NCBI RefSeq assembly: GCF_964355755.1
Contig: NC_092679.1
Span: forward strand, 18,280,932 to 18,344,931
Direction of reading: 5' to 3'
DNA from: Antedon mediterranea
Lineage: Eukaryota > Echinodermata > Crinoidea > Comatulida > Antedonidae
DNA: 64,000 nucleotides
Numbering within the stretch: position 1 is the stretch's first letter; every line of letters starts with the position of its first letter. The notes under the pieces were generated by a model. The model was not told the DNA's origin. It saw only the letters and a list, made by a program, of their open reading frames with translations, and searched no databases. A program made the translations under genes and the position numbers. Shown here piece by piece: positions 13,088 to 19,000 of this stretch.

Positions 13088-16000
13088 ATGTCTGCAAACG
13101 ATGCGATTGTGAAGGAAGGATGGCTATATAAACGAGGTTTGTCTAAATAGTTTTTTTTTATTTTCATCTTAAAATTAGTAGTTTATTTATATCATATACA
13201 GTAAATCCAATTAGAGGCTTTAGTACTGGTACTGTGACAATGCCAGGATTTTAACCCAAGACTTTGGTTTAGTAAGTACGCATTTTAATTTGGCCTTAAC
13301 TAATTTTACCATAAAGGAAAAAGGTCATTTCCAAACCATAGACCTTTAAATTCTGGACCTTTTTATATTGAGAAATCCTCAAAGACAAAGATCCTGTTGC
13401 AACCATATTTTTACTCAAAATAAAACCAATGAGATATTTTCTTTTCTAATGACGTCGTCATTATCCACAAAGATTAGTCAAATGTTTGTGCTACTCTGTG
13501 GTCAGTCAGTGGTCAAATTGAGACTGGGATTATTGTAGTTAAAATTTGCTTCACAGAAAATGAGTTTTGAAGATCAAGACCGGAATAAATTGGAATTTTT
13601 AAAACCATATAGAAAGAATTCTGTGGTTTTTTATAGCAATAATTTCAAAATACGTTTTTAAACTGTGTTCAGTAGAAATGGGCTCTTATTATTTTGATGA
13701 TACTGACGACTTGCAATTGGTTTACTAAAAGGAAATATTTTTTACCAGTTTTGGTCTGATGCAGATCTGGGGCAGGAAACAACCAGATATTTTTAGCTAA
13801 ATAGCTTCAAGTGATTTGAGCATTAATAATTGGGTTGTAGACGTACCACTTCAAGGTTTAAAAGTCTTAGTCATCTTTTAAATATTGTTCTATATTCTTG
13901 TATTATCCAGTCAAATAGGCCGAATGAAAATTATATTCTTTATACAGTAAAAGTACTATAATATAAAACAGTTTTAAACAGGCTATATAGAGCATTTTAA
14001 AGTAGACACCTCCAGGACCCTTCAAATTGTAGGGTAGGGTCTTAGCTTGATATGTGTAAAAGGGAAGTGTATAATATAAACAAATGTCAACGTTGCAAAG
14101 ATCTATTCAACAGAATATTTGTCATATATATTGATAGAAATTTTGTGTTGAATGAGGAGGTTGTTTGGGTGTGGTGAGGGTTAAGGGCAGGAAGGCGTTA
14201 CTGATATATTATGTTGAAGGCAGACAGCAGAGTCTGTGATAGTGGTGGTACTGTACTTAATACATTGTGTATTAAATGGAAGGAGTAATGAATGACATTT
14301 CATTAAGTCATCACTTCTCTGAACTTTCTCAATTATGCGAACTGTCTTGATGGACGTGTACATAAATAGGAGATACTCAATTTAGACAATATAAAATTTA
14401 ATGCTTTAAAAACAAAGCAATGAAAGTAAATGTACAGGCTGTAGAATCAATGAAAGAATGGATATAAAATTTAAAAACTGGTATTATTGGCTAATAAATC
14501 TTGGCCTGATTTCAGTAATAAGACACAAAATAATCCAAATGGATTATTATGAATCTCAATGTGAAAGTTTATTATAGACAATTGACAAGACATCTTATAA
14601 TGTTTTTCTTTTTCTATATGTTGACCTATTTATTACATTAAGTGTTACCAAAAAAAGTAACACTTAAAATGTAATAAAGATAACCCAGAATAGTAGGCAT
14701 GTTAAGGAGCATATTTTAGGCAAATCCTTCAACTTGTGATAACATTTTGAAACTTTGCACAGTTATTCATTAGGGTGTCAAAAATATTAAATGGAAGGGT
14801 TGCACAAAATTTGGTCAGGGGAAAGCCGCCATTTTGGATTTCAAAATGGCTGACCTCAAATTTTCACTTGTCAGGTATATCTCTGCTAAAGAGGCACCTA
14901 GAGTTCTGATTTTACCTGCAAAATATATGGTAGTGGGGTCACCAAACATATTGGTATAATTAACATTTGATTGCATGGCGGCCATGTTGGATTTCAAAAT
15001 GGCGGACTTCAAATTTTCACTTTTCAGGTATATCTCTGCTAAAAAGGCACCTAGAATTGTGATTTTAGGTGCAAATTATAATTATGGTAATGGGGTCACC
15101 AAACATATTGGTATAACTAACATTTTAATTGCATGGCGGCCATGTTGGATTTCAAAATGGCGGACCCCAATAACTTTTCAGGTATATCTCTGCTAAAAAG
15201 GTACACAGTGCTCTGATTTTAGATGCAAATTATATGATAATGGGTCACCAAACATATTGGTATAATTAACATTTGATTGCATGGCGGCCATGTTGGATTT
15301 CAAAATGGCGGACTTCAAATTTTCACTTTTCAGGTATATCTCTGCTAAAAAGGCACCTAGAATTGTGATTTTAGGTGCAAATTATAATTATGGTAATGGG
15401 GTCACCAAACATATTGGTATAACTAACATTTTAATTGCATGGCGGCCATGTTGGATTTTAAAATGGCGGACCCCAATAACTTTTCAGGTATATCTCTGCT
15501 AAAAAGGTACACAGTGCTCTGATTTTAGGTGCAAATTATATGGTAATGGGTCACCAAATATATTGCTATTTAACTAACATTTTGATTGCATGGCGGCCAT
15601 TTTGAATTTCAAAATGGCAAGCTCAAAATGTTTCAGTACGGTACCTACAGTTATAATTTTAGGTACAAAGTATAATATGGTATTGAGGTCAACAAACATA
15701 TTGGTATAACGTCTTTGATTGCCATTTTGAATGTAGCTCAAACCTGGTAACCACACAGCTCTGTACATCACAAATCACTCTTTCTGCATTTACAGCGTCC
15801 AAGATCACAGTCGGTGTGTCACAGCGATTTGTGACATCTGAAAGTTCCGGCAATGAACTCCAAACTGGACTAAATTTGTTGCCGTCCTTCCTCCATCCCC
15901 AGTTTGCTGGGTCCTGTTCAACCCTGAATGCATCTAGACAGTTGTACCACTTTCTGGCTTGTAGAAAAGACCGTTTCACATGTTCTCTTAATGCCGCAGA

Positions 16001-19000
16001 TGTTGGGGGGATATTTTCAATAGTCTGTAGTGAAAAGATATCGTCTTGCATCATTTACCTTCTTTCTACATAGTTACAACAAACTGTTCTAGATAATCTG
16101 TGTCACTAACATCCCCTACAGACAATGACATCGTCTCAAATTCCTTTCCTTGAACAGATGAAGTTGTATCACAACTGCTAAAGGAATGAAAGAACAAGTA
16201 AGCGGCTGATGCTTGTGATCCAAGAGAAGTAATCTTGTGTATTGAGATATACTTCAAGTGCTTCCCCACTCCAAACTCGATCCAAACCTCGTGGATGCCA
16301 GGTATTCTGTGGAAAGTTGACAATGAAATAACCACAACATCACTGTCTACAGTCTTGACAAGAATGCGCGGACAAATTTTAGCGGCATGTTTAACATGAA
16401 CAAACATACGTTCATCTGCCTCTTCTATGTTACATGGCATCAGCGGTTTTATATTTACAGACTGGTTTGTTACAGCTCTGTCTCTCAGAGACCCTACAAA
16501 CATTCCGTGATTTGTGTCAATGTTCTCTACTACTTCAGTTACAATTAATGAAACAACTCTGATTTGTTGTCATCATATCTCGAATATGTGGTCAAATTGT
16601 TGGGCATGCTCCCACTGGCTTTGACGCCCCTCCTTACACCAGAGCCGCGGTTTGAACGCGTACTAGACTTTAAACCGTCGTTAAAGTATCTATCGAAAAC
16701 CAAATCTGGTCACGTCACTGATCGAAGTTGATGGTCTATATATGGTTGTACGACAAAATGAAGCACCATTAGTTGCTGCCAAGGTGTTAGATGGACCAGC
16801 AATAATCAATATGTTCAGGCCCAATGATTCGAAGACATTCATTGAGTATATATCAAGTGTCATACAACCATCAACTTCGATCAGTGACACGACTAGATTT
16901 GTTTTTCGATAGATACTTTAACGACAGTTTAAAGTCTGGTACGCGTTCAAACCGCGTCTCTGGTGTAAGGAGGGTCGTTAAAGCCAGCGGGAGCTTGCCC
17001 AACAATTGGACCACATTTTTTAGATTTGATGACAACAAATCAGAGTTGTTTTCATTTATTGTAACTGAAGTAGTAGAGAACATTGGCACAAATCACGGAA
17101 TGTTTGTAGGGTCTTTGGGAGACAGAGCTGTAACAAACCAGTAAATATACAATCGCTGATGCCATGTAACATAGAAGAGGCAGATGAACGTATGTTTGTT
17201 CACGTTAAACTTGCCGCTGAAATTTTCCACGCATTGTCAAGACTGTACACAATGATGTTGTTGTCAGCTTTCCACAGAATACCTGGCATCCACGAGCTTC
17301 GGATCGAGTTTGGAGTGGGAAGCACTTGAAGGCCATCCCAATACACGAGATTGCTTCTTCTCTTGGATCACAAGCATCAGCCGCTTACTTGTTCTTTCAT
17401 ACCATTAGCGGTTGTGATAGAACTTCATCTGTTTAAGGAAAAGGTAAAGCTACATTTAACGAGACTTTGAAAAAGATGCCATGTATGACTCCAGTTTTTG
17501 AGAGGATGTCATTGTCTGTAGGGCATGTTAGTGAAACAGACACAGATTATCTAGAACAGTTTGTTGTAACTATGTCTACTGCAGAACATTTAATGATGCA
17601 AGACGATATCTTTTTACAACAAGAGAAAGACTATTGAAAAGCATTAAGAGAACATGTGAAACGGAAGCCAGGAAGTGGTACGACTGTCTAGATGCATTCA
17701 GGGTTGAACAGGACCCAGCGAACTGGGGATAGAGGAAGAACGGCAACAAATTTAGTCCAGCTTGGAGTTCATTGCCGGAACTTTCAGATGTCACAAAGGT
17801 TTTAATTCGCTGTGGACACACCGACTGTGATCTTGGATGCTGTAAATGCAGAAAGAGTGATTTACGATGCACAGAGCTGTGTGGTTGCCAGGGAAAATGT
17901 GACCTACAATAAGTGTCCGTGTTAAATGCATATGAACATAAACAAATAGTGTAAAGCCAGTACGGGTTGAGCTACATTCAAAATGGCCGCCATGCAATCA
18001 AAGACGTTATACCAATATGTTTGTTGACCTCAATACTATATTATACTTTGTACCTAAAATTATAACTGTAGGTACCGTACTGAAACATTTTGAGTTTGCC
18101 ATTTTGAAATTCAAAATGGCCGCCATGCAATAAAAATGTCAGTTAATAATATGTTTGGTTACCCATTACCATATAATTGGCACCTAAAATCAAAACTCTG
18201 TGTACCTTTTTAGCAGAGATACCTGAAAAGTGAAAATTTGAAGTCCGCCATTTTGAAATCCAAAATGGCCGCCATGCACTCAAAATGTTAGTTATACCAA
18301 TATGTTTGGTGACCCCATTAACATATAATTTGCACCTAAAATCAGAACTCTAGGTGCCTTTTTAGCAGAGATATGCCTGAAAAATGAAAATTTGAAATCT
18401 GCCATTTTGAAATCCAACATGGCCGCCATGGAATCAAAATGTTAGTTATACCAGTATGTTTGGTGACCCCACTACCATATAATTTGCACCTAAAATCAGA
18501 ACTCTAGGTGCCTCTTTAGCAGAGATATACCTAAAAAGTGAAAATTTGAAGTCCGCCATTTTGAAATCTAAAATGGCCGCCATGCAATTAAAATGTTAGT
18601 TATACCAATATCTTTGTTGACCCCATTACCATATAATTTGCACCTAAATTCAGAACTCTAGGTGCCTATTTAGCAGAGATATACCTGAAAAGTGAACAAT
18701 TTGGGTCCGCCATTTTGAAATCCAAAATGGCGGCTTTCCCCTGACCAAATTTTGTGCAACCCTTCCATTTCATATTTTTGACACCCTAATGAATAACTGT
18801 GCAAAGTTTCAGAATGTTATCACAATTTGAAGGATTGGGTCACTTAACAGGCCTACTAGAATTGATGTTTATAAGAAACAGTACATTTTTTATGTTTTTA
18901 GAATGTTGAAAAAAGCGCTTATGGGGCCCTAAACAGTGCCAAGAGGAAAAAACAGGCATTAAAATATGTCAAAAAAGCGCTCCACTTTGGCTTCCTAAAC

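What the first reader, a model, noticed from the sequence alone, without database searches (positions are those of the whole stretch)
14691..18858. 4.2 kb near-complete palindrome carrying two inverted copies of a decayed gene inside AKT intron 1
Seen: unique ends, tandem arrays and a coding segment are mirrored around a loop of about 135 bases. Known: fold-back elements such as the sea-urchin TU type have tandem repeats in long inverted termini, but do not normally duplicate the protein gene in both arms. Inferred: the loop plus right arm is the original gene 3' half; the left arm arose by inverted duplication, giving a structure that would form a 2 kb hairpin in AKT pre-mRNA or in single-stranded DNA.
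Basis: partly seen in the sequence, partly recalled or inferred. Interest (0 to 1): 0.72.

Follow-up and report, generated by a model that had tools for sequence, protein, structure and literature searches.

The report
Palindromic transposon family in AKT intron
The 4.2 kb palindrome in this AKT gene is one of at least 47 dispersed copies of a mobile, non-autonomous DNA transposon whose inverted ends have grown inward until both halves carry the same decayed 3' half of the parent transposon's gene; it is a real and unusual element, but a variant of known fold-back and Mu-killer-like structures rather than a new kind of system.

Summary
Window 14691-18858 is a near-palindrome (80-89% arms) in the first coding intron of AKT, with an asymmetric centre at 16755|16756. 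It is not an assembly artefact: at least 47 of 51 detected loci in the same 354 Mb genome carry both arms. All 17 copies tested with both ends intact have an exact 3-bp target-site duplication (here GAA), and one copy has matching empty sites elsewhere. So the whole palindrome transposes as a unit.

One full-length relative was found on C1 (about 21.9 kb with nested insertions, TSD TAT, gene broken). It shows how the palindrome is built. The left tip is the parent's own 5' end and the right tip its 3' end; the 5' half of the gene is replaced by an inverted copy of the 3' half. This is an extended terminal inverted repeat, most likely from template switching between the ends during gap repair. 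The arms have drifted without coding constraint, and two subfamilies share a right arm but differ in the left.

The parent is AcademX-like (3-bp TSD, XPG-like conserved acids; nuclease homology not statistically confirmed). A mobile Mu-killer-like silencing role is possible but untested.

The parts
14688..14690 (.). target-site duplication, left copy (GAA)
   Evidence: exact 3-bp TSD in 17 of 17 copies with both ends intact
14691..14747 (+). 5' tip of the element, L-type: TAGTAGGCATGTTAAGGAGCATATTTTAGGC..., same signature as the 5' end of the full-length parent on C1
14828..15618 (.). left tandem array, 154-bp period, 5.2 copies (306-bp higher order)
15743..16755 (-). left-arm copy of the parent gene's 3' half, inverted, decayed; includes a 167-codon open stretch at 16069-16569 (-)
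16755..16756 (.). head-to-head junction of the two gene copies (type A: parent coordinate 101 reverse joined to 1 forward)
16756..16860 (+). single-copy spacer (loop): start of the right gene copy, absent from the left arm
16756..17925 (+). right-arm copy of the parent gene's 3' half (XPG-like region and C-terminus), decayed
18098..18731 (.). right tandem array, 154-bp period, 4.1 copies
18825..18858 (-). 3' tip of the element, R-type (reads TAGTAGGCCTGTTAAGTGACCCAATCC on the - strand), like the parent's 3' end
18859..18861 (.). target-site duplication, right copy (GAA)
13103..13138 (+). AKT first coding exon segment ([12 protein letters not shown]), upstream of the insertion
27619..27735 (+). 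next AKT PH-domain exon ([12 protein letters not shown]...), downstream of the insertion

Best explanation
It is a non-autonomous DNA transposon of a palindromic family, derived from a full-length AcademX-like transposon. The parent had about 300-bp terminal inverted repeats holding a 154-bp repeat, distinct 5' and 3' tips, and one multi-exon gene. During repair of a break or gap inside such an element, synthesis from the 5' side probably switched, through the homologous terminal repeats, onto the 3' end and copied back through the 3' array into the 3' half of the gene. Joining to the right half then gave an element that is almost all inverted repeat but keeps one 5' and one 3' tip. Because both tips are intact, transposase supplied in trans moves it as a unit, making 3-bp target duplications. 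The copy in AKT is one such insertion. Shown here: both-arm structure of the family, exact 3-bp TSDs, an empty site, identity of both tips with the parent's 5' and 3' ends, neutral drift of the arms, different left arms on a shared right arm. Inferred: template switching as the event, the superfamily name, and supply of transposase by a relative.
For: At least 47 of 51 loci have both arms. The TSD is exactly 3 bp in 17 of 17 copies with both ends intact, against 16 of 380 mismatched pairings. The L009 flanks joined with one TSD match at least 30 uninterrupted empty sites across the join at 89-96%. The parent on C1:2455424-2477290 has both tips and TSD TAT. Palindrome left tips share the parent's 5'-specific sites and right tips its 3'-specific sites. 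Both arms match the parent's 3' gene half head to head. Arm-lineage changes are 21 synonymous / 78 nonsynonymous against 12/9 on the parent branch, Fisher p = 0.002. Left-arm stops are shared by many copies, so amplification followed decay. Right arms of types A and B are 98.5% identical while their left arms are 92.7% identical.
Against: Only one full-length relative was found and its gene is broken, so the source of transposase is not shown. The switch point within the terminal repeat cannot be located sharply, because the two ends are nearly alike there. The tree of arms is star-like, so it cannot say whether the two arms of one palindrome were copied from one element or from two. XPG homology is not significant by profile search.
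Confidence: 0.85

Rival explanations
1. A mobile Mu-killer-like regulator: read-through transcripts of the palindromes fold into long hairpin RNA, are cut into small RNAs, and silence the parent transposon. The family then persists as a silencing system as well as a parasite.
For: Same architecture as Mu killer (inverted duplicate of transposase gene between terminal repeats; PMC3440606). 909 of 1,244 bases of the parent's 3' gene half are covered by perfect 21-mers of the element, and 1,317 left-arm bases lie in perfect runs of 21 or more to the other arm. The parent is down to one broken copy while palindromes number at least 47. At least one insertion, the one in AKT, lies in an intron.
Against: No small-RNA or transcript data. 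The only matching target is already broken and the next relative (L026) shares no 21-mer. Arms drift without visible coding constraint, though hairpin complementarity was not tested for constraint.
Confidence: 0.15
2. Single origin by plain inverted duplication of one element's 3' end (fold-back priming or hairpin capping), with both tips being 3' tips, followed by amplification.
For: Both arms hold the same 3' gene half with short asymmetric spacers. Arm lineages radiate from about one point. The junction of type C can be derived from type D by a deletion between CAA repeats, so one palindrome with an eroding centre could explain several junctions.
Against: Left tips carry the parent's 5'-specific 10-bp insertion and flanking sites, right tips the 3' ones, in types A, B and D.
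Confidence: 0.08
3. Assembly artefact: a chimeric inverted join at the loop.
For: Long near-palindromes are a known source of misjoins (general knowledge).
Against: Dispersed copies with different unique flanks, 3-bp TSDs, and several distinct shared centres.
Confidence: 0.01

Closest known systems
Mu killer (Muk), Zea mays, derivative of MuDR (PMC3440606)
   Same: Partial inverted duplication of the transposase gene lying between two terminal repeats; centre inside the gene; potential long hairpin RNA.
   Different: Mu killer is a single locus whose two terminal repeats both come from the mudrA end. Here at least 47 dispersed loci exist, the two tips come from the parent's two different ends, and no silencing has been shown.
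Galileo 2RT copies (extended or recombinant TIR), Drosophila mojavensis (PMC3573991)
   Same: Non-autonomous copies in which internal sequence is recruited into longer inverted repeats with internal tandem repeats; chimeric copies with different halves; multi-copy subfamilies.
   Different: Galileo is P superfamily with 7-bp TSDs; the longest arms reported are 1.26 kb and recruit 121-441 bp. Here arms are about 2 kb, include about 1 kb of coding sequence in each, and TSDs are 3 bp.
Fold-back elements (FB/Tetris in Drosophila, TU in sea urchin)
   Same: Long inverted ends built of tandem repeats, little or no loop.
   Different: TSD is 3 bp here against 8-10 bp in FB and TU (general knowledge), and the parent protein shows no Mutator-type domain in Pfam scans.
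AcademX DNA transposons (Academ superfamily)
   Same: 3-4 bp TSD (PMC10045372); gene with FEN1/XPG-like acidic motifs.
   Different: Membership of the parent rests on TSD length and motifs only; the palindromic derivative architecture was not found in the literature searched.
Pack-TIR elements formed by gap filling or FoSTeST (PMC8277862)
   Same: Template switching with microhomology inside a TIR transposon, then transposition of the product.
   Different: There the filler is foreign genic sequence; here it is the element's own 3' half, inverted.

Membership tests
TIR DNA transposon (cut-and-paste type) | Fixed termini, target-site duplication of fixed length, dispersed copies, empty sites | tested here: met
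AcademX (Academ superfamily) | 3-4 bp target-site duplication | tested here: met
   3 bp exactly in 17 of 17; published value from PMC10045372
AcademX (Academ superfamily) | XPG-type nuclease domain in the encoded protein | tested here: inconclusive
   Conserved D...D...EAD...DxD...GCD pattern in six relatives, but no significant hit to PDB, Pfam XPG_I or a FEN1 profile; hhalign's only local match is the GxD motif, E 0.21
AcademX (Academ superfamily) | Academ DDE transposase domain | tested here: inconclusive
   Only sub-threshold DUF6589 matches in the same region of several relatives, E 0.0004-0.03; no Academ model was recognised in the libraries
Fold-back (FB/TU) elements | Very long inverted ends containing tandem repeats | tested here: met
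Fold-back (FB/TU) elements | 8-10 bp TSD of the Mutator-like group | tested here: not met
   3 bp
Mu killer-like silencer | Inverted duplicate of the transposase gene between functional ends | tested here: met
Mu killer-like silencer | Hairpin transcript processed to small RNAs that silence the parent | not testable with these tools
   no RNA data held
Galileo (P superfamily) | 7-bp TSD and P-type transposase | tested here: not met
   3-bp TSD; no P-element Pfam hit
MITE | Short (under about 0.8 kb), non-coding | tested here: not met
   full copies span about 3.5-4.2 kb with about 1 kb of gene sequence in each arm

The most novel reading that the evidence does not exclude
A self-propagating hairpin element: palindromic derivatives that arise by terminal-repeat extension, outcompete and silence their own autonomous parent through long-hairpin small RNAs, and carry that silencing to new loci including host gene introns. 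In effect, a mobile Mu killer in an animal.
Probability: 0.12. Interest if true: 0.75.

Novelty: new variant of a known kind. Interest (0 to 1): 0.5.

Why it matters
It gives a clear example of how a transposon turns into a nearly full-length palindrome. The parent, its two tips, several centres and about 50 daughters are all in one genome, so models of terminal-repeat extension (gap repair, template switching, centre erosion) can be tested on real junctions. It also offers a natural setting to ask whether inverted derivatives of a transposase gene silence their parent in animals, as Mu killer does in maize, and whether a 2 kb hairpin in the AKT pre-mRNA affects that gene.

Tried and rejected
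Assembly artefact: rejected by dispersed copies with TSDs. Plain inverted duplication of the 3' end: disfavoured by tip diagnostics. Arms from two different functional elements: not supported, since arm lineages show no excess of synonymous change. Four fully independent origins, first suspected from four different centres: weakened, because type C can be derived from type D by a CAA-microhomology deletion and types A, B and D share the L-type tip. Pfam, PHROGs, PDB sequence search and a FEN1 profile comparison to prove the nuclease domain: no significant match. AlphaFold on the window's 167-residue left-arm frame without an alignment: pLDDT 41, uninformative. Proteins from genome loci were not sent to the structure tool because its stated rule does not list them. 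Rfam: nothing. Empty-site search among fetched loci: none; genome-wide with the L014 flanks: only weak partial matches besides its own locus; with the L009 flanks: clear empty sites. Kojima 2020 on AcademH was not held.

Full report
OBSERVATION. Window 14691-18858 is a near-palindrome. Self-BLAST pairs 15743-17892 with itself in reverse (80% over 2,297 columns) and the outer parts at 86-89%. The outer parts hold tandem arrays with a 154-bp period. AKT exons flank it: [12 protein letters not shown] at 13103-13138, then [12 protein letters not shown] at 27619 and kinase exons from 30380. So it lies in the first coding intron.

A DISPERSED FAMILY, NOT AN ARTEFACT. The same genome (354 Mb) holds many copies at 92-97% identity, and the loop alone finds about 30 loci. 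Clustering hits by position gives 52 clusters, 46 with both orientations. Two single-orientation clusters are one element (L030) split by a nested retrotransposon, so at least 47 of 51 loci are palindromic. These counts are lower bounds.

IT TRANSPOSES AS A UNIT. Copies end in TAGTAGGC...GCCTACTA. In 17 of 17 copies with both ends intact the flanks repeat exactly 3 bp, never more, against 16 of 380 when flanks are mismatched (the one other copy, L021, has a degraded left tip and no TSD). The type D copy L031 also shows TAC/TAC (read from the sequences). The window copy has GAA/GAA. Copy L009 sits in another repeat: its flanks joined with a single TSD match at least 30 uninterrupted sites across the join at 89-96% identity. 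Copy L020 is a tail-to-head dimer that landed as one unit with TSD CAC.

THE PARENT. One full-length relative was found, at about C1:2455424-2477290 (- strand). Its 3' tip and gene were read first. Its 5' tip was found through a genome search with the window's left tip. Both tips are flanked by TAT. The element is about 21.9 kb because of nested insertions, including another fold-back element with 346-bp repeats inside the first exon. Its gene is broken. Its middle exon has no other close copy in the genome; the next relative is 58% identical.

HOW THE PALINDROME IS BUILT. The parent's 5' and 3' tips differ. The 5' tip has an extra 10 bp (within GGWGCATATTTTAGGC) and other private sites; the rest of the terminal repeat (about 300 bp, with one 154-bp unit) is shared. 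Palindrome left tips of types A, B and D carry the 5' signature and right tips the 3' signature. Inside, both arms match the parent's 3' gene half: the left arm in reverse from parent coordinate 101, the right arm forward from coordinate 1, meeting at 16755|16756. So the 5' half of the gene has been replaced by an inverted copy of the 3' half. The terminal repeat has been extended inward. Template switching through the shared terminal repeats during gap repair is the simplest route. It is inferred here, and is the kind of process proposed for Pack-TIRs (PMC8277862).

SEVERAL CENTRES, SWAPPED HALVES. Four centres were seen in parent coordinates: A 101|1, B 334|125, C 260|10, D 215|10. B has 4 bp of microhomology (TCAA). 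C can be derived from D by a deletion between CAA repeats. This fits repeated erosion of one palindrome's centre as well as repeated origins. In the gene region the right arms of A and B are 98.5% identical but their left arms only 92.7%, no closer than any arm is to any other. Halves have therefore been exchanged between lineages.

NO CODING CONSTRAINT ON THE ARMS. Polarised by majority, changes private to arm lineages are 21 synonymous and 78 nonsynonymous; changes private to the parent are 12 and 9 (Fisher p = 0.002). The arms have drifted as non-coding sequence while the parent lineage still evolved as a gene. Stops in the left arm are shared by many copies, so the recent amplification (about 1-2% divergence between copies) came after decay. 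This is non-autonomous amplification.

WHAT THE GENE IS. Relatives in the same genome have open frames of up to 1,555 aa. Several give sub-threshold hits to DUF6589 in the same region (E 0.0004-0.03). The C-terminal region carried by the palindrome arms has invariant or near-invariant acids in the order D, D, EAD, DxD, G(C/A)D, which from general knowledge matches the FEN1/XPG active site. HMMER and hhalign give no significant support. With the 3-bp TSD, which PMC10045372 gives as typical of AcademX (3-4 bp), I call the parent AcademX-like, not a tested member.

FUNCTION. The most likely reading is a genomic parasite: an element that is nearly all terminal repeat with extra copies of the subterminal array, moved in trans. 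A silencing role like that of Mu killer (PMC3440606) fits the anatomy, and long perfect duplex runs exist. Nothing here tests it, and the only present-day target is already broken.

VERDICT. It is a new variant of a known kind: a multi-copy, gene-carrying palindromic derivative, with parent and several forms in one genome.

Noticed in passing
L025/L032, about C1:2461.9-2465.3 kb (inside the parent's first exon): A second, unrelated fold-back element: inverted arms of 346-bp tandem repeats (88% alike), about 3.3 kb, inserted into the parent gene.
   Followed up: partly
L020:1132-8601: Two type-B palindromes joined tail to head and sharing TA at the junction, inserted as one unit with a single TSD (CAC).
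   Followed up: partly
L093 (reverse complement 246 onward); L095 (reverse complement 228 onward): L-type 5' tips (about 150-210 bp) followed by interiors unrelated to the parent or to the palindrome; no R-type tip within about 4 kb.
   Followed up: no
L030:3381-7371: A retrotransposon with long open frames (714 and 632 aa) nested inside a type-A palindrome; the palindrome keeps TSD CAA around it.
   Followed up: no
G000, many loci: A large, diverse set of DUF6589/XPG-like transposon proteins in this genome, several with open frames over 1,000 aa.
   Followed up: partly
L009 flanks; empty sites such as C7:10445029-10445288: L009 landed in another abundant repeat family whose units recur about every 160 bp beside the empty site.
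   Followed up: no
window 32020-32170 and 34102-34235: A smaller inverted pair (151 bp, 81%) in later AKT introns.
   Followed up: no
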